Shown: in pieces, positions 28,821-38,484 of the stretch
Layout: every line of letters begins with the position of its first letter
Numbering within the stretch: position 1 is the first letter of the stretch
Assembly: GCA_027490665.1 (NCBI GenBank)
Contig: JAIXXP010000006.1
Location: 1-64,000, forward strand
Length of the DNA stretch: 64,000 bases
Direction of reading: 5' to 3'
Source of the DNA: Cryomorphaceae bacterium
GTDB taxonomy: Bacteria > Bacteroidota > Bacteroidia > Flavobacteriales_D > Crocinitomicaceae
Program-made: the position numbers and the translations under genes
Notes under the pieces: model-generated
Seen by the model: the letters and a program-made list of their open reading frames with translations, nothing else
The model's database searches: none
What the model was told of the DNA's origin: nothing

Positions 28821-28903
28821 CTTATAATGTGGATAAAAAGATGTTATAATAATCCTACCAATTTAGAATAGTGTTGCTATTATTTTTGCAACAAATTACT
28901 TTT

Positions 28904-29572
28904 ATGGATCTTGTTGACCGTTTTCAGATTCCAGTACTCGAAGAAATTGCACTGCGCAACCCGCAGGCGACGCAACTTGGGCAGCGCATCATAGAAGGAA
29001 GCATTCTCTTGATCAATGAACTTGGTTTTGAGCAGTTTACTTTTAAAAAGCTGGCGCTTTCTGTGGGCACAACAGAAGCATCTGTGTACCGGTATTTCTC
29101 AAGTAAGCAAAAGCTTTTGCTCTACCTGATCAACTGGTATTGGGGCAGGCTAGAGTGTCGCTTGCTTCTACAAACGCAAGGAGGTAACCCAAAAGAACGC
29201 CTCGTCAAAGCCCTTGAATTGCTCTTGGTACCACAGCCCACATCGCTTTCATTCACCAATGAAAAACGCCTACAGCGTATTGTCATCCACGAGGCTTCTA
29301 AAGTTTTTCTGACCAAAGCCGTAGATGCCGATCATCAAACCGGATTTCATAGTATATATTTGCAAATAGTGCACTATATTTCTGATCTAGTACGCGCTTA
29401 TCAACCTAAATGCAAGTATCCAGAAATGTTGGTCACTACTTTACTAGAAGGCAGTTTGCAACAACGATTTTTTGGTCAGCATTTGCCAGAAGTCACCAAC
29501 GCATCAGAACAAGAAGATGCAGTGGCTGTTTTTTATACACAACTATTTTTTAGCTATCTCGATCATGAATAA
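28904..29572 (+). CDS. TetR/AcrR family transcriptional regulator
   Basis: 222 residues from the ATG at 28904 (MDLVDRFQIP); the frame extends upstream but lacks conserved sequence there. The N-terminal helix-turn-helix spans about 20-70 with LGFEQFTFKKLALSVGTTEASVYRYFSSKQKLLLYLINWYW (in part: TTEASVYRYFSSKQKL), typical of TetR. The C-terminal ligand-binding domain is not assignable. Its stop overlaps the ABC gene start by eight bases, and the operon continues with HlyD and TolC genes, so it most likely represses its own efflux operon in response to an unknown compound. Confidence 0.9.
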   Translation: MDLVDRFQIPVLEEIALRNPQATQLGQRIIEGSILLINELGFEQFTFKKLALSVGTTEASVYRYFSSKQKLLLYLINWYWGRLECRLLLQTQGGNPKERLVKALELLLVPQPTSLSFTNEKRLQRIVIHEASKVFLTKAVDADHQTGFHSIYLQIVHYISDLVRAYQPKCKYPEMLVTTLLEGSLQQRFFGQHLPEVTNASEQEDAVAVFYTQLFFSYLDHE

Positions 29573-31199
29573 AGACGTCAGCAAACCTTATGAGCGCTTT
29601 TGGGCGCTGCTCAAACCAGACAGCAAAGATATTTCAGACATCTATCTCTTTGCCATCATCGGCGGCCTGCTCAGCCTAGGCTTGCCTTTGGGCATACAAG
29701 CCATCATTAACTTTATTCAGGCGGGAAAAGTCAGCACGTCCTGGTTCTTGTTGGTAGGTTTGGTTGTTTCGGCTATTGGTTTTTCAGGCTACATGAACAT
29801 TGCGCAATTGCGCATTACCGAAAATTTGCAACAGCGCATATTTACACGTTCGGCCTTAGAATTTGCTACGCGCATTCCAAAAATTCAGCTACGCGAACTC
29901 CTATTGCGCTATGCGCCAGAATGGACCAACCGCTTTTTTGACACGCTCACCATTCAAAAAGGAATTTCCAAATTGCTTATAGATTTTACAGCGGCATCTT
30001 TACAGATTTTATTTGGGCTCATCCTGCTGTCATTTTACCATCCATTTTTCATCATCTTTGGCTTTGCCCTTCTTTTGTTACTTATTTTGATTTTTAGAAT
30101 GACGGCTAAACGTGGTTTTGTAACGAGCCTCGATGAATCCAAATACAAATACAAGGTGGCCAATTGGCTCGAAGAAGTTGCTCGCAATCGACTGACTTTC
30201 AAACATCTTGGCAACAATGGCATTTTGCTCAAGCGTTCAGATACTTATTTGCAAGGTTACCTGAAGTCTAGAGATGCGCACTTCAAAGTTTTGGTTCAGC
30301 AGTACAAATACCTGATTGGTTTCAAGATGCTCATTGCATTTGCTTTACTGATCATCGGTGGTTTGTTGGTCCTCAGTCAGCAAATGAATATTGGGCAATT
30401 TGTTGCGGCCGAAATTATTATCGTTTTGGTGCTCAATTCGGTTGAGAAGTTAATCGTTAGCCTTGAGATGGTATACGATGTGCTCACGGCTATTGAAAAA
30501 ATAGGTGAAATTACCGACCTCCCTTTAGATTCTGAAGAAGGCATCGAACTTCAAAAAGTGCCGGCACTTGCAATTGAAGTAACGCAATTAGAGTACCAAA
30601 CCAGCTGGAGTCAAACACCTCTATTGGCTAATTTATCCTGCCGTTTTGAAGCTGGTAAATTCTATCATATCCAAGATTTTGAAGGTAACAAAGCTCAAGG
30701 ATTATTTCTCATGATCACTGCCATGGCCTTTCCCAATAAAGGTCAAGTGCTCATCAACGGCATTCCAACGAGTAACCTGAATGTCGAAACCTTGCGCACC
30801 CAAATTGCCAGTTTGTCTCATCACGACCAACTCATCTACGGAACCGTTCTTGAGAACATCACCATGGGACGCAACTGCGATGTTTCCCAAGTAATGGAAT
30901 TAGCTGTTGCCATAGGACTAGACCAAAAGGTTTTGGCCCTGACCGATGCTTACCAGACCATACTGAATCCAGAAGCAAGCACCCTAGACAGACAACTTAT
31001 TACGCTTGTTTTATTGTGTCGAGCACTCATCGCAAATCCGGCAGTCATCCTTTGGGATACACACACTCATTATTTATCAAATACAACTCTGGAAAGCGTA
31101 TTAAAGTATTTAACCAGCGCATATAAAGGAACCCTCTTATTAGCAAGTATCGATGAGCACAACCTCTCGCTCAACCACGAAAAATTGATCTTATGTTAA
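29565..31199 (+). CDS. ABC exporter subunit with a degenerate nucleotide-binding domain
   Basis: 544 residues from the ATG at 29565, which overlaps the TetR stop. Residues about 1-310 form an ABC exporter membrane domain (six segments; LRITENLQQRIFTRSALEFA is typical of this Bacteroidota efflux family). The nucleotide-binding domain (about 340-540) keeps the fold (LANLSCRFEAG, GQVLINGIPTSNLNVETLRTQIA, GTVLENITMG), but Walker A reads DFEGNKAQG near 371-379 with no GK[ST], the signature is not LSGGQ, Walker B is AVILWDTHT with Thr for the catalytic Glu, and the H-loop His is missing. The protein probably cannot hydrolyse ATP alone. It is overlapped by the hlyD start. Confidence 0.87.
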   Translation: MNKDVSKPYERFWALLKPDSKDISDIYLFAIIGGLLSLGLPLGIQAIINFIQAGKVSTSWFLLVGLVVSAIGFSGYMNIAQLRITENLQQRIFTRSALEFATRIPKIQLRELLLRYAPEWTNRFFDTLTIQKGISKLLIDFTAASLQILFGLILLSFYHPFFIIFGFALLLLLILIFRMTAKRGFVTSLDESKYKYKVANWLEEVARNRLTFKHLGNNGILLKRSDTYLQGYLKSRDAHFKVLVQQYKYLIGFKMLIAFALLIIGGLLVLSQQMNIGQFVAAEIIIVLVLNSVEKLIVSLEMVYDVLTAIEKIGEITDLPLDSEEGIELQKVPALAIEVTQLEYQTSWSQTPLLANLSCRFEAGKFYHIQDFEGNKAQGLFLMITAMAFPNKGQVLINGIPTSNLNVETLRTQIASLSHHDQLIYGTVLENITMGRNCDVSQVMELAVAIGLDQKVLALTDAYQTILNPEASTLDRQLITLVLLCRALIANPAVILWDTHTHYLSNTTLESVLKYLTSAYKGTLLLASIDEHNLSLNHEKLILC

Positions 31200-32551
31200 A
31201 CATTTCTCCGCAAAATCGCAATCAAATTGATACTGATGGGCTTGTTTCAACAGACATGCTGAACAAAGCACCCAAAAAACTCTTGCGCAATGCAATTTAC
31301 TTTCTATTGATTTTTGGCGGAATCATCCTTTTGCTTCCCTGGACGCAAAATATCAGGTCAAATGGGCAGGTGCTCACCCTCCGACCAGAACAACGGCCCC
31401 AAACCATCAATGCGCTCATTGGTGGGCGTATAGAGAAGTGGTTTGTAAAAGAAGGCGATTTGGTCAAAGCGGGTGATACAATTATGTTTATTTCCGAGAT
31501 CAAAGATGGCTATTTTGACCCGCAACTAGTGGGGCGCAGCGAGCAACAGCTCAGAAGTAAGGAGCAAAGTGTCGTCTCCTATGGCGATAAAGTTCAGTCA
31601 CTAGACAGGCGCATCGATGCGCTCATCGAAACTGGAAAGTTGAAAGTCAAGCAGGCGCGAATCAAAACGCAGCAAGCCCAGCTGAAACTAAAGTCAGATA
31701 GTATCGAAAATCAAGCCGCGATGCTCAACTATCAAATTGCAAAGGATCAGTTCGAGCGCTTTGAAAAACTTTACAAAGAAGACCTCAAGTCTAAAACAGA
31801 AGTTGAAACCCGAAAAGTTGCCATGCAGCGCGCACAAGCATCAATGATCAGCGCACAACAAAAGTTTTTACAGAGTCGCAATGATATCATCGATGCTAAG
31901 GTGGAGCTCAATGCTGTAGAAACCAAGTTTCAGGATGAAGTTTCTAAAGCGGAGTCAGAGAAATTTACAGCGCTTTCAAGTATGTACGAAGCAGAAATCG
32001 ATGTAAGTAAAATGCAAACTCAGGTTGCCAATTACTCAATTCGCAACGGCATGTATTATATTTTAGCTCCACAAGATGGCCGCATCACCAAAACGCTATC
32101 AAGTGGCCTAGGAGAAACCATCAAACAGGGCACAGCAATAGCCACCATTATGCCTACCAACTATGACCTTGCTGTTGAAATGTACGTCAGACCAATGGAT
32201 CTTCCTTTATTGCAAGTTGGTCAGCATGTCCGCATACAGTTCGATGGTTGGCCAGCAATTGTTTTTTCGGGTTGGCCTAACACCAGTTACGGAACCTACG
32301 GCGGAACTGTTTTTGCCATTGATCAATTTGCCAACGAGAATGGCGAGTTTCGCGTGCTTGTATCCCCGGACCCCAAAGAAAATAAATGGCCAGAAGCACT
32401 GCGTGTAGGCGGAGGCGCATATGCAATGCTCCTTCTCAACGATGTGCCTATTTGGTACGAGCTCTGGCGAAACGTCAATGGTTTCCCTCCAGATTACTAC
32501 AAAGCACCGGTTAAAAAATCAACTGTAAAAGCCAAGTCAAATGACAAATAA
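31193..32551 (+). CDS. HlyD-family membrane fusion protein
   Basis: 452 residues. One transmembrane helix (about 34-53, FLLIFGGIILLLPW) is followed by a lipoyl-like half-motif (INALIGGRIEKWFVKEGDLVKAGDTIMFI), a long coiled-coil hairpin (about 115-270), the second half (YYILAPQDGRITKTL, about 290) and a beta-barrel. This is the periplasmic adaptor that links an inner-membrane exporter to TolC. Its ATG overlaps the ABC gene, and its end overlaps the TolC gene by 11 bases, so the proteins are made in a coupled way. Confidence 0.93.
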   Translation: MLNISPQNRNQIDTDGLVSTDMLNKAPKKLLRNAIYFLLIFGGIILLLPWTQNIRSNGQVLTLRPEQRPQTINALIGGRIEKWFVKEGDLVKAGDTIMFISEIKDGYFDPQLVGRSEQQLRSKEQSVVSYGDKVQSLDRRIDALIETGKLKVKQARIKTQQAQLKLKSDSIENQAAMLNYQIAKDQFERFEKLYKEDLKSKTEVETRKVAMQRAQASMISAQQKFLQSRNDIIDAKVELNAVETKFQDEVSKAESEKFTALSSMYEAEIDVSKMQTQVANYSIRNGMYYILAPQDGRITKTLSSGLGETIKQGTAIATIMPTNYDLAVEMYVRPMDLPLLQVGQHVRIQFDGWPAIVFSGWPNTSYGTYGGTVFAIDQFANENGEFRVLVSPDPKENKWPEALRVGGGAYAMLLLNDVPIWYELWRNVNGFPPDYYKAPVKKSTVKAKSNDK

Positions 32552-33938
32552 GCACGCTGTACTTTTCATTTTATTGTTTTGCTCTTTTACGAATTGGTCG
32601 CAAAATGCTGAACTGCGCCCAGAGGCATTCATGCTGCAGGTGCTCGAAGGTCACCCTTTGGCAAAGCAAGCCAAACTCATCCCTGAGTTTGCAGAAACCT
32701 ATGTATTAAAAGCACGTGGTGGTTTTGACCCGAAATTGAATTACGACCTCGCTCAAAAATACTACGGCAATAAAATGTACTATAGCTTGTCTGATGCCCA
32801 GCTCAAAGTACCCACTTGGTATGGTTTAAGTGTTCAAACAGGTATCGAACAAAACCGTGGTGCCTACCTAGATCCTCAGGGGCTTACACCTCAAAATGGC
32901 TTGTGGTACGGCGGGCTCACTGCCAATCTCGGTAACGGATTACTCATTGATGAGCGCCGTGCGGAGTTACAAAAAGCAAACGTCTACTTAAAGAGCAGTC
33001 AACTTGAACAACGCTTGGCACTCAATGAGTTGGTTATGGAGGCTGGTTACGCCTATTGGGATTGGTATTTGCAATTTTATGCGGGCCAAATTCTCAAAGA
33101 AGCATTGGAAGTAGGCGCTGTACGTCTTAGGGCTATGCAGCGCATGGCAGAACTCGGCGACCGCCCCTACATCGACACTGTTGAGGCTGCTATTCAATAT
33201 CAGACCAGAGCCGCTGCCTTTGCCGATCAAGAAGCGAGGTCTGCGGCCGCTAGTGCCGTTCTGAATCGCTATCTCTGGAAAGCAGATGGAACGCCTCTTG
33301 AGCTCAGTTCAGAAACCCAGCCTCTTCAGGCCGACAGCTTAAGTGTACAACAGCCTAAATTGGTATTCGCAGGTCCGGTCGATACGCTGGTTCAACAACA
33401 TCCCTACTTAGGAATTTTATCTTACAAATTAGATGTCTTGGCAATCGAAAAGCGCTACAATCAAGAGCAACTGAAACCACAAATTGAACTCAAATATAAC
33501 TTTCTTAACGAACCTATACAGTACAATCCACTCGCGCAATTTTCAATCAATGATTACAAATGGGGTGTGAGTGCAGCAATGCCGCTGTTTCTGAGAAAAG
33601 AGCGCGCTGCAGTACAACAAACCAAACTTAAAATTGAGCAAACCAACTTTGAGCGCCAAGACCGCAGTGCAGAACTTACCGCAAAAATGCTATCTACAAG
33701 AGCAGAATACCTCAATGCCCGCAAACAACTTTTAATTTTCACAGAAAACGCAACCAGTACCAAAAAGTTATTGGCAGCAGAACTCAGTATGTTTGAAGCT
33801 GGTGAAAGCTCCCTTTTCATGGTAAACATGCGCGAAAGCGCCGCGTTTCAGGCTGCGTTAAAAGTGGTGGAGTATCAAGCGAAGTGTGAACAGCTTTGGC
33901 TCAAGTGGGAATTTCTTCAGGCTAACTTAGTGAGATAA
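32541..33938 (+). CDS. TolC-family outer membrane efflux protein
   Basis: 465 residues with a signal peptide (about 1-20). Two repeats of long alpha-helical segments and beta-strands match the outer-membrane efflux protein fold: the AELQKANVYLKSSQLEQRLALNELVMEAGYAYWDWYL stretch (in part LNELVMEAGYAYWDW) is a typical helix start. It forms the outer-membrane duct for the HlyD/ABC proteins encoded just upstream. The gene is convergent with and overlaps by 17 bases the SbtA-like gene. The exported substrate is unknown. Confidence 0.92.
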   Translation: MTNKHAVLFILLFCSFTNWSQNAELRPEAFMLQVLEGHPLAKQAKLIPEFAETYVLKARGGFDPKLNYDLAQKYYGNKMYYSLSDAQLKVPTWYGLSVQTGIEQNRGAYLDPQGLTPQNGLWYGGLTANLGNGLLIDERRAELQKANVYLKSSQLEQRLALNELVMEAGYAYWDWYLQFYAGQILKEALEVGAVRLRAMQRMAELGDRPYIDTVEAAIQYQTRAAAFADQEARSAAASAVLNRYLWKADGTPLELSSETQPLQADSLSVQQPKLVFAGPVDTLVQQHPYLGILSYKLDVLAIEKRYNQEQLKPQIELKYNFLNEPIQYNPLAQFSINDYKWGVSAAMPLFLRKERAAVQQTKLKIEQTNFERQDRSAELTAKMLSTRAEYLNARKQLLIFTENATSTKKLLAAELSMFEAGESSLFMVNMRESAAFQAALKVVEYQAKCEQLWLKWEFLQANLVR

Positions 33939-36047: not shown

Positions 36048-36995
36048 ATGAACTACACCCTCAATCAACTTCGCATCTTTTTAAAAATTGTACAAAAAGA
36101 AAGTATTACTCGAGCTGCAGAAGCGCTATTTCTAACCCAACCGGCTGTTTCTATTCAGCTTAAAAATTTTCAAGATCAATTTGATATCCCACTTACCGAA
36201 ATCGTCAATAAAAAGTTGTATGTAACCGATTTTGGCCGTGAGGTAGCAACTGCAGCAGAAAAGATTTTAGAAGAGGTATATGCCATCAACTATAAAACTT
36301 CGCAATATAAAGGTCAGCTCAGTGGTCGGCTCCGCATCAGTGTAGTGTCTACTGGTAAATATATCATTCCTTATCTCCTAGCTGATTTCATGAAGGCACA
36401 TCCTGGCGTTGAGCTCGTTCTAGATGTGTCTAACCGTGCAAATGTCACGCTTAATTTAGAACGCAATGAAACAGATTTTTCTTTGGTATCGGTTTTGCCT
36501 GATCGCCTCAATCTAGAGGAGATTCCATGTATGAAAAACCAATTGTTCTTGGTTGGAAAAGAACAACTTTCCATTCCTAAAAAAGGACCGTGGCACAAAG
36601 AACTCGAAGAAATTACTTGGGTCAAGCGCGAGACCGGTTCAGCAACTAGAAAAGCATTAGACGAATACCTCAGTAGTCATGAAATACAAGTACGACGACA
36701 TATCGAACTCACCTCTAATGAAGCAGTGAAGCAAGCGCTTATTGCCGGTTTGGGGTATTCTATTATGCCACTCATTGGTATCCGTAACGAACTACAACTT
36801 GGGCAACTCACCATCTCAACTTTGCCTGATTTACCACTAGAATCTATGTGGCGTGTAGTTTGGCCTAAAGGAAAGAAACATAGCGGTGCAGCAGCAGCAT
36901 TTAAGGCTTACTTGGAGCAAAATATGCCGCAAATTATCGAAAAGAATTTTGGTTATATCGATGGGCTTACGGCTGTGCCAAAATCCATGATCTAA
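36048..36995 (+). CDS. LysR family transcriptional regulator (CbbR/CmpR-like position)
   Basis: 315 residues. The N-terminal winged helix-turn-helix (about 1-60: TLNQLRIFLKIVQKESITRAAEALFLTQPAVSIQLKNFQD, in part AAEALFLTQPAVSIQLKNF) is unmistakable, followed by a periplasmic-binding-protein-like effector domain (about 90-295). It is divergent from the sbtA operon with 83 bases between starts, the usual arrangement for a LysR activator of its neighbour; CmpR/CbbR-type regulators of carbon uptake have this layout. The effector is unknown. Its 3' end overlaps the convergent hydrolase by 29 bases. Confidence 0.93.
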   Translation: MNYTLNQLRIFLKIVQKESITRAAEALFLTQPAVSIQLKNFQDQFDIPLTEIVNKKLYVTDFGREVATAAEKILEEVYAINYKTSQYKGQLSGRLRISVVSTGKYIIPYLLADFMKAHPGVELVLDVSNRANVTLNLERNETDFSLVSVLPDRLNLEEIPCMKNQLFLVGKEQLSIPKKGPWHKELEEITWVKRETGSATRKALDEYLSSHEIQVRRHIELTSNEAVKQALIAGLGYSIMPLIGIRNELQLGQLTISTLPDLPLESMWRVVWPKGKKHSGAAAAFKAYLEQNMPQIIEKNFGYIDGLTAVPKSMI

Positions 36996-38430
36996 TCCAA
37001 GACATTATTTTTGGGTCTAGCGTTTGCTCAAGGGTAGCGTATTCACTGAGGTTGCATTCCTTGCATTGCTGAAACAAATGATTGGCACCCGTTAAAACGT
37101 AAAATGCACTTTTGTCCAAGGACGCTGGCGTCATTCCTGTTTTGAATCCAACTTGATTCACAAGCGCAGGTACTTGAACGTCTTTCGATCCGTTGATGAC
37201 TAAAAATGGCACGTTTAATTGCGCGAGATACGTTTTACTCTCAAAGGCCAAAAATTGGCGTGCCCAATCGTTGTTGAAAAAGGCGCTCATTTGCGTTAGT
37301 AGCTCTTCTTGGCTCGCGCCATCGAGAAGTTTGGCAGGAATGCTATCCCATGCTTGACTTAACCAAGTCCCATAACTTTTTCTGAAATCATTGGAATTTG
37401 TGGCAAGTGCAATTTCAGCTCCTTTACTATAAAGGCGTTGGTTCCAAATGCATTCTTCTTTGGAAAAACCCATTGCTTCAGGGATGAGGTATTGCTGAGC
37501 AATGAGCACATCCTTGCCGCTTGTGCCAACAGATGCTGCTTCTATAATTCCAGAAATTTTGTTGGTCAGAACAGCAGCGCGCAGGGCGGTCATGCCACCT
37601 TCTGAGTGTCCGTTGGTCCAAACAATTTTGTTGGTCAGTACTGCTGCACGCAAGGCGGTCATGCCTCCTTCTGAATGTCCGTAAATATAAATCTTGGCTT
37701 TTGGATACGCTTTGCTGAAGTACTCAACAATGGCCACCAAATCTTTGCCGAAATCTACTTGTGTAGCGCTTTCGAATTTTCCACCTGATTTACCTGTGCC
37801 TCTGTCGTCATAGCGGTAAGAGGCGATGCCGTATCTGCCCAAATGATCAGCCAATACCCAAAATGGTTTGTGGCCTAAGATTTCACAGTTGCGGTCTTGG
37901 GCACCTGAGCCCGATACCATAATGACAAGAGGAAAGGCACTTGATTTCTCTAATTCGGGCAAAATGAAGCTTCCAGAAATCTTGATTTTCTTGGCTGTGG
38001 ATATCTCGATTTCTTTTTCAAGATAAGGAAACGGTGCTTTGGGGTCTTGCATTTTACCCTTTACTTCCTTGACGGCTTGCACTTCTTTATAGAACACAGC
38101 CTTCCAGGTCAGGCCTGATTGCGCCATGGTACCCACCAAAGAATCGCCTTGCAGTTTGGCCGCATACGTGAGGCCGATCATTTTCCAACTGAACCACAAG
38201 CTGTCGCTAAACAAAGCGTAGTCTTCCATGGTTTGTGGTTTCAGTTTGGGCTGATCCGGAATAGAAACGATAACCGCGCCATCTCGCCCAACACCTTCAA
38301 TTTGTAAATCCATCAATAGCGATTTGCCCGCCACTTGAAAATTACTATGCCAGGTGCCTTGTATTTGTGCGTAATAAGTGGATTCAATAAATGGAAGGAT
38401 GAATAATAAGACAAGGTAGTTCAGCTTCAT
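36967..38430 (-). CDS. Exported alpha/beta hydrolase with a duplicated nucleophile elbow
   Basis: 487 residues from the ATG at 38428-38430, where a signal peptide begins (MKLNYLVLLFILPFIESTYYAQ). An N-terminal beta domain (about 25-130) precedes an alpha/beta hydrolase domain with VSGSGAQDRN (oxyanion region), YDDRGTGKSGG, and the nucleophile motif GHSEGG. The last occurs twice, 23 residues apart, within an exact 19-residue repeat (DNA at 37555-37682). The late Asp is in INGSKDVQVPAL and the His in TGANHLFQ. Homologous exported esterases have one elbow, so one copy is surplus. Whether the protein folds is uncertain. An assembly join of two strain variants is an alternative. Confidence 0.85.
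   Translation of the reverse strand: MKLNYLVLLFILPFIESTYYAQIQGTWHSNFQVAGKSLLMDLQIEGVGRDGAVIVSIPDQPKLKPQTMEDYALFSDSLWFSWKMIGLTYAAKLQGDSLVGTMAQSGLTWKAVFYKEVQAVKEVKGKMQDPKAPFPYLEKEIEISTAKKIKISGSFILPELEKSSAFPLVIMVSGSGAQDRNCEILGHKPFWVLADHLGRYGIASYRYDDRGTGKSGGKFESATQVDFGKDLVAIVEYFSKAYPKAKIYIYGHSEGGMTALRAAVLTNKIVWTNGHSEGGMTALRAAVLTNKISGIIEAASVGTSGKDVLIAQQYLIPEAMGFSKEECIWNQRLYSKGAEIALATNSNDFRKSYGTWLSQAWDSIPAKLLDGASQEELLTQMSAFFNNDWARQFLAFESKTYLAQLNVPFLVINGSKDVQVPALVNQVGFKTGMTPASLDKSAFYVLTGANHLFQQCKECNLSEYATLEQTLDPKIMSWIRSWILAQP
37555..37682 (-). repeat. In-frame tandem duplication, 69-bp period, inside the hydrolase gene
   Basis: The 59 bases from 37555 and from 37624 align with seven differences, every one synonymous, giving two identical 19-residue blocks that start GHSEGG and end LTNKI. 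The intervening bases encode VWTN. Divergence at silent sites only means the copies are not a fresh slippage product, or that they come from two strains. Confidence 0.9.
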
Positions 38431-38484
38431 TTTTTTCAAATTAGGTTGTAAGAAATTGAATCAACAAATTAATAAATCAACAAA

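What the first reader, a model, noticed from the sequence alone, without database searches (positions are those of the whole stretch)
29565..31199. ABC exporter subunit with every ATPase motif lost but the operon intact
Walker A (DFEGNKAQG), Walker B Glu (Thr), signature and H-loop are all missing, while the membrane domain, fold and the neighbouring HlyD and TolC genes are complete. In the close Bacteroidota family I recall the Walker A as intact with a weak signature. A homodimer of this chain would have no active site, so either it pairs with an unlinked ATPase or transport is driven another way.
Basis: partly seen in the sequence, partly recalled or inferred. Interest (0 to 1): 0.65.

Follow-up and report, generated by a model that had tools for sequence, protein, structure and literature searches.

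The report
ABC exporter that lost its ATPase
This gene makes a bacterial export pump of the ATP-driven ABC type whose ATP-burning engine has decayed beyond use although the rest of the pump operon is intact, and related bacteria have deleted that engine altogether while keeping the pump, so the pump probably runs on another energy source such as the membrane's proton gradient.

Summary
The 544-aa chain (29565-31199) has an ABC-exporter membrane domain and a recognisable, well-modelled nucleotide-binding domain (NBD), but Walker A, Q-loop Gln, signature, Walker B Glu and H-switch His are all replaced. It sits in an overlapping TetR-ABC-HlyD-TolC operon.

It is not a one-off. In 249 relatives from Bacteroidota the operon is conserved and no second ABC half-transporter accompanies it. 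The ATPase decays in steps: a near-canonical outgroup; a large set with Walker A only; about five separate Walker A losses, including the window's clade; and one clade (at least 45 genomes, three family-level groups) in which the NBD is deleted. There the membrane protein ends straight after TM6 and HlyD starts at once. No NBD of this family was found elsewhere in ten such genomes.

The membrane domain stays under strong purifying selection and keeps two nearly invariant TM6 acidic residues. The NBD-docking coupling helix 2 erodes together with the NBD.

Best explanation: a former ABC exporter now driven by an ion gradient, working like SbmA or NBD-less LmrA/MsbA but feeding HlyD-TolC. The energy source is inferred. 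A shared ATPase working in trans is the main rival.

The parts
28871..29572 (+). TetR-family regulator, first gene of the operon; overlaps the ABC gene by 8 nt
   Evidence: PF00440 E=7.4e-10; present upstream of most homologs. The GTG start is mechanical and not verified.
29565..31199 (+). ABC half-exporter, 544 aa, with degenerate NBD
29565..30539 (+). Transmembrane domain (aa 1-325), six TM helices, strongly conserved
   Evidence: PF00664 47.9 bits; model; dN/dS about 0.01-0.03 in close pairs
29889..29906 (+). Coupling helix 1 in ICL1 (aa 109-114 in the model), kept in all groups including the NBD-less one
30189..30209 (+). Coupling helix 2 in ICL2 (aa 209-215), conserved in canonical and Walker-A-only members, eroded in the window's group, no helix in the NBD-less model
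30411..30413 (+). E283 in TM6, acidic in every representative of all four groups
30444..30446 (+). E294 (followed by K295) in TM6, acidic in 92-100% of each group
30573..31193 (+). Degenerate NBD (aa 337-543), ABC fold retained in the model
30675..30701 (+). Walker A position: DFEGNKAQG
30810..30827 (+). Q-loop position: SLSHHD (Gln replaced by His)
30981..31007 (+). Signature position: TLDRQLITL
31041..31067 (+). Walker B position: AVILWDTHT (Asp kept, catalytic Glu is Thr)
31143..31163 (+). H-switch position: ASIDEHN (His replaced)
31193..32551 (+). HlyD-type periplasmic adaptor, 452 aa; ATG overlaps the ABC stop by 7 nt
   Evidence: PF13437 E=1.7e-15; conserved downstream of nearly all homologs
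32541..33938 (+). TolC-type outer-membrane channel, 465 aa
   Evidence: PF02321 E=3e-23; conserved

Best explanation
It is the inner-membrane subunit of a tripartite TetR-regulated exporter (ABC-derived transmembrane homodimer + HlyD adaptor + TolC channel) whose lineage has left ATP behind. SHOWN by sequence: the NBD of this chain lacks the residues needed to bind and hydrolyse ATP in the known way, while the operon and membrane domain are kept under strong selection; the family has degraded the ATPase in steps; and one clade has deleted the NBD cleanly with the operon still intact. [quoted passage not shown] INFERRED order of events: once hydrolysis was gone, ATP binding would tend to trap the transporter, so losing Walker A (the window's clade) or the whole NBD (Cytophagales) freed it; in the window the remaining NBD would be a structural or regulatory remnant. 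The substrate is unknown.
For: (1) Motif loss in the window and about ten near relatives. (2) In 249 homologs: 12 with Walker A and Walker B intact, 149 with Walker A or a near form only, 47 Walker A lost, 41 with no NBD. (3) ML tree of TMD columns only: NBD loss 1 change (SH-aLRT 100), nested in a clade whose Walker A is already GSGKHT/GSGKNT; Walker A loss 5 changes; canonical outgroup split 100. (4) NBD-less genes followed by HlyD at a median of -8 nt (versus +3 in NBD-bearing operons), then TolC; at least 45 genomes in one order plus three from f14. (5) No NBD of this family elsewhere in ten NBD-less genomes: best 103 bits at 31% identity, in ~600-aa exporters, while the sister-clade NBDs with drifted Walker A score 122-541 bits. 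(6) TMD dN/dS 0.007-0.03 in close pairs; NBD 0.05-0.14 in Walker-A-lost pairs; NBD/TMD divergence ratio 1.57 canonical, 1.74 Walker-A-only, 2.15 Walker-A-lost. (7) Coupling helix 2 information 2.97 / 2.59 / 2.38 / 2.12 bits from canonical down to NBD-less; R207 basic in 92% / 95% / 48% / 22%. (8) E283 acidic in 100% of all groups, E294 in 92-100%; ABCB1 has Phe and Gly there. (9) Precedents from papers: SbmA, an ABC-TMD-derived secondary transporter driven by protons (PMC13316013); LmrA-MD and MsbA-MD, engineered NBD-less forms, transport by ion gradient, and nucleotide traps ATPase-dead full-length protein (PMC2704374, PMC4979069, PMC6155054).
Against: No transport or ATPase data exist. E283 and E294 are about equally conserved in the near-canonical outgroup, so they predate the loss and may serve structure or substrate. 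Coupling helix 1 stays strongly conserved even in the NBD-less clade, which could mean a docking partner remains. The NBD in the window is still under purifying selection and still folds in silico, so it does something. Most of the family keeps Walker A, which suggests ATP binding still matters there. The LmrA/MsbA precedents come mostly from one laboratory.
Confidence: 0.55

Rival explanations
1. The degenerate or NBD-less chain is energised in trans: it heterodimerises with a canonical half-transporter encoded elsewhere, or recruits a shared ABC ATPase subunit, as ECF transporters share an energy module.
For: The genome encodes four other PF00664 half-transporters with canonical Walker A and at least one further canonical motif, and ten NBD-less genomes each hold 28-41 NBD hits. 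Coupling helix 1 stays conserved in NBD-less members. Heterodimers with one degenerate site are common (PMC7756269).
Against: No linked partner half-transporter in the loci examined. The relative G008, for which the search with this protein gave no match, has four half-transporters of matching sizes (620, 591, 591, 625 aa against 620, 591, 599, 624), so no extra partner travels with the operon. Coupling helix 2 erodes with the NBD and has no helix in the NBD-less model. No family NBD elsewhere.
Confidence: 0.2
2. The subunit no longer pumps actively: it is a passive gate, facilitator, or scaffold and regulator of a HlyD-TolC conduit, and selection keeps it for assembly.
For: The known energy residues are gone in the window and absent in NBD-less members; a review notes that assembly of the hemolysin system does not need energy consumption (PMC8277102).
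Against: TMD dN/dS of 0.01-0.03 and invariant charged residues inside TM6 fit a working transport path; TetR control and coupled translation suggest an efflux system used on demand (inference).
Confidence: 0.18
3. The NBD still works in an unrecognised way (ATP binding without hydrolysis as a switch, or slow hydrolysis with other residues), at least in the many members that keep Walker A.
For: 149 of 249 homologs keep a Walker A of the G....GK type or close to it while Walker B often reads ED, and the NBD is under purifying selection; Asp in place of the catalytic Glu occurs in degenerate sites such as TmrB (PMC8277102).
Against: Hard to reconcile with the window, where Lys, Ser and most Gly of the P-loop are replaced, and impossible for 41 NBD-less members.
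Confidence: 0.07

Closest known systems
Type I secretion / tripartite ABC exporters (HlyB-HlyD-TolC, PCAT1, LssB/PrtD)
   Same: Same gene trio, same half-transporter fold: model matches HlyB at Z 28.2 and PCAT1 at 28.3; best NCBIfam hits are this group, far below cut-off.
   Different: No working ATPase motifs; no C39 or C39-like N-terminal domain in the window; TetR-regulated; a clade without any NBD.
SbmA/BacA-like peptide transporters (SLiPT)
   Same: Secondary transporters derived from an ABC transporter TMD by loss of the NBD; glutamates in the TMD used for protons (PMC13316013).
   Different: Importers without HlyD-TolC; have TM0 helices and lack the coupling helices. The NBD-less members here hit only PF00664 in Pfam, keep coupling helix 1 and arose inside a different ABC family.
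LmrA-MD and MsbA-MD (engineered NBD-less ABC exporters)
   Same: Truncated after the TMD; reported to move drugs by ion gradients without ATP; LmrA uses a TM6 glutamate, E314 (PMC2704374, PMC4979069, PMC6155054).
   Different: Laboratory constructs; here nature made the truncation and kept it in at least 45 genomes. Positional equivalence of E314 with E283/E294 was not tested.
Heterodimeric ABC exporters with a degenerate site (TM287/288, TmrAB, BmrCD)
   Same: Degenerate catalytic motifs in an exporter NBD; close structural match.
   Different: Those keep one working site supplied by a partner subunit; here no linked partner gene exists and all sites of a homodimer are lost.

Membership tests
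ABC exporter, type IV fold (PF00664 + PF00005) | ABC_membrane transmembrane domain | tested here: met
   PF00664 47.9 bits, cut-off 28; fold match Z about 28
ABC exporter, type IV fold (PF00664 + PF00005) | NBD with Walker A, signature, Walker B Glu and H-switch | tested here: not met
   DFEGNKAQG, LDRQL, WDT, SIDEH; PF00005 below cut-off. NBD fold kept in the model
ABC exporter, type IV fold (PF00664 + PF00005) | Transport driven by ATP hydrolysis | not testable with these tools
   Needs biochemistry
Tripartite HlyD-TolC export system | Inner-membrane transporter, HlyD adaptor and TolC channel in one operon | tested here: met
   Window; homologs
Type I secretion ATPase families (TIGR01846, TIGR03375, TIGR01842, TIGR03796/7) | NCBIfam curated score | tested here: not met
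   Best 93.6 bits against a cut-off of 709; Walker-A-bearing homologs also far below
SbmA/BacA-like transporters (SLiPT) | Sequence membership (SbmA/BacA Pfam model) | tested here: not met
   Window hits only PF00664 and PF00005; NBD-less L146, L147 and L149 hit only PF00664 at E up to 0.1
SbmA/BacA-like transporters (SLiPT) | No NBD | tested here: not met
   Window keeps a degenerate NBD; the Cytophagales clade has none
SbmA/BacA-like transporters (SLiPT) | No coupling helices | tested here: not met
   Window model keeps CH1 and CH2; NBD-less model keeps CH1 only
SbmA/BacA-like transporters (SLiPT) | Conserved glutamate ladder in the TMD and proton coupling | tested here: inconclusive
   E283 and E294 in TM6 nearly invariant but also present in the near-canonical outgroup; coupling needs biochemistry
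Heterodimeric ABC exporter with one degenerate site | A partner half-transporter with a working site | tested here: inconclusive
   No second half-transporter next to the operon in the loci examined and none that travels with it by size in G008; an unlinked partner is not excluded

The most novel reading that the evidence does not exclude
A natural, second and independent conversion of an ABC exporter into a secondary (ion-gradient-driven) transporter, this time inside a HlyD-TolC tripartite exporter, with intermediates still living: near-canonical, hydrolysis motifs lost, ATP site lost (the window), NBD deleted.
Probability: 0.5. Interest if true: 0.87.

Novelty: new variant of a known kind. 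Interest (0 to 1): 0.74.

Why it matters
ABC transporters are defined by their ATPase. How a primary pump becomes a secondary one is an open question, studied so far through SbmA and through laboratory truncations of LmrA and MsbA. This family offers a graded natural series in one conserved operon, so the role of the NBD, the cost of ATP binding without hydrolysis, and ion coupling by the membrane domain can be tested directly. If the mechanism holds, it is a tripartite exporter type driven by an ABC-derived secondary transporter, beside the RND, MFS and ABC types, and names such as 'ABC transporter ATP-binding protein' mislead for such genes.

Tried and rejected
Misplaced motifs or frameshift: rejected, since alignments need no shift and about ten near-identical sequences agree. 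Pseudogene: rejected, with low dN/dS in both domains and no internal stops. Single-lineage oddity: rejected, the family shows graded loss. NBD split off as a separate gene: rejected for ten NBD-less genomes; the ATPase gene downstream in L146 and one in L149 are not shared by the other NBD-less loci scanned. Apparent 'canonical ABC' neighbours: in L114/L115 it is the family gene itself by position; those in L084/L087 are ~910-aa ORFs that look UvrA-sized (not tested); L081's was not examined; ABC ORFs near L193 and L197 match at 25-26% and were not examined; the one beside L198 is an oligopeptide-type double ATPase. A solved structure from this family: none, only general ABC exporters. Defence-system link: none. 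Papers: no description of this family found. The fold lists were dominated by ABC exporters; SbmA was not listed, which says nothing either way.

Full report
WHAT IS THERE. The window lies in a genome of Crocinitomicaceae type (G000, 2.79 Mb, 139 contigs; the nearest named contigs are Crocinitomicaceae and Flavobacteriales MAGs). The ORF at 29565-31199 encodes 544 aa. Pfam finds ABC_membrane at 47.9 bits and ABC_tran only at 23.1 bits, below its cut-off. Alignment to solved ABC exporters and to 109 homologs places every ATPase motif position without a shift, and all of them are replaced except the Walker B Asp. The gene overlaps TetR upstream by 8 nt and HlyD downstream by 7 nt, and HlyD overlaps TolC, so the operon is probably translated as a unit (inference). 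An AlphaFold model from an alignment of locus proteins has mean pLDDT 87.6 and shows a complete half-transporter with an ABC-type NBD. Its best matches are TM287/288, PCAT1, HlyB, TmrAB and MsbA at Z about 28.

THE FAMILY. Searches of the order (88 of 199 genomes positive), genome contigs, the phylum (97 of 395) and the order of an NBD-less genome (224 of 291, which reaches any TMD relative) gave 249 proteins. The ABC-HlyD-TolC order is conserved, TetR somewhat less so, and no second ABC half-transporter accompanies the operon as a rule. Scoring the motifs gives four states: 12 with Walker A and Walker B intact, most with H-switch (for example L161: GKSGAGKTT, LPGGLIRK, LILDEAF, ISHD); 149 with Walker A or a near form but changed signature (typically LPRSIVQK or FSKGIVDK), Walker B (LLLLED, LLIKD) and H-switch (Ser or Asn); 47 with Walker A lost; and 41 with no NBD. 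The scoring is by simple patterns, so single members may be misfiled.

THE NBD-LESS CLADE. These proteins end straight after TM6; the six examined have 7-11 residues left after the TMD. HlyD starts at a median of 8 nt before the stop, and TolC follows. They occur in single-contig genomes (for example G445, G797, G785). I counted at least 46 loci in 45 genomes in the listed rows (open frames of 334-394 aa), and three more in family group f14. The NBD of a sister-clade protein was used to search ten of these genomes: the best hit was 103 bits at 31% identity, in ordinary ~600-aa exporters, whereas sister-clade family NBDs with drifted Walker A score 122-541 bits with the same query (E-value statistics differ, bits compared). 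An NBD-less model has mean pLDDT 82.9, six TM helices and a short helix at coupling helix 1, but no helix at coupling helix 2. It matches ABC exporter TMDs at Z about 23-27.

TREE. A maximum-likelihood tree from TMD columns alone (125 representatives, quick mode) puts all NBD-less proteins in one clade (SH-aLRT 100), nested among Cytophagales relatives whose Walker A has already drifted to GSGKHT or GSGKNT. Walker A loss with NBD retained needs five changes. The window's clade has support 99 and the near-canonical outgroup is split off with 100. Some inner nodes are weak, so 'five' depends on the tree. Loss rather than gain is inferred because canonical motifs are the general state of ABC exporters.

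SELECTION. In close pairs lacking Walker A, dN/dS (Nei-Gojobori) is 0.007-0.03 for the TMD and about 0.05-0.14 for the NBD; many pairs were saturated at synonymous sites and not used. The ratio of NBD to TMD amino-acid distance rises from 1.57 (canonical, only 7 pairs) to 1.74 (Walker A only) and 2.15 (Walker A lost). So the NBD is relaxed but not neutral. In the alignment of 62 NBD-bearing proteins, all invariant columns but one (N431) lie in the TMD. Coupling helix 2 loses information in step with the NBD (2.97, 2.59, 2.38, 2.12 bits), and R207 next to it falls from over 90% basic to 48% and 22%. Coupling helix 1 does not decline.

MECHANISM. Experimental precedents were read. SbmA is a proton-driven secondary transporter derived from an ABC TMD that lost NBD and coupling helices and uses a glutamate ladder (PMC13316013). 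LmrA-MD and MsbA-MD, cut after the TMD, transport by ion gradients without ATP; LmrA needs E314 in TM6 (PMC2704374, PMC4979069). In full-length ATPase-deficient MsbA and LmrA, nucleotide binding traps the transporter in an inactive state. This suggests why loss of hydrolysis could be followed by loss of the ATP site, as in the window, or of the whole NBD. In this family E283 is acidic in every representative and E294 in 92-100%, both inside TM6, where ABCB1 has Phe and Gly. They are candidates for coupling, but the near-canonical outgroup has them too. The energy source is therefore an inference, which I put at about 55%.

PARTNER TEST. The window's genome has four other PF00664 half-transporters, all with a canonical Walker A and with LSGGQ, LDEA or both found by pattern. 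The relative G008, rated 100% complete, gave no match to this protein yet has four half-transporters of nearly the same sizes, so none looks dedicated to the operon. Matching was by length, not by alignment. Among relatives at least 98% complete, those with the operon average about 5.25 PF00664 proteins (8 genomes) and those without about 4.3 (3 genomes); the difference is about one, the operon's own gene. A shared ATPase is not excluded.

VERDICT. It works most like SbmA or NBD-less LmrA, is not a member of the SbmA family by the tests done, and is a new variant of a known kind.

Noticed in passing
window 36967-38439 (-), repeat at 37555-37613 and 37624-37682: An alpha/beta-hydrolase-like ORF carries an in-frame direct repeat (59 nt, 88% identical, spacing 69) that duplicates the GHSEGG nucleophile-elbow stretch. 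It could be real or an assembly artefact.
   Followed up: partly
L148, L150, L151 versus L236-L238: NBD-less genes from family group f14 cluster with those of f21 genus g269 (support 99), although f14 did not appear in the order searched: possible horizontal transfer of the NBD-less operon.
   Followed up: no
L238 and L239 (genome G704): One genome carries at least two NBD-less copies, each with its own HlyD and TolC.
   Followed up: no
L152-L157, L222, L250, L251 and outgroup L158-L163: Many Cytophagales relatives and the near-canonical outgroup have an N-terminal extension of about 150-250 aa; its nature was not identified because the Pfam call on it failed on coordinates.
   Followed up: no
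L014, L025, L048, L052: Four relatives of the window have lost Walker A but keep a textbook Walker B (such as LLLLDEPT), so motifs decay in different orders.
   Followed up: no
L096 (CALQBB020000150.1): A contig filed under the betaproteobacterium Polynucleobacter carries a family member 49% identical to the window protein; probably a contaminant contig in that MAG.
   Followed up: no
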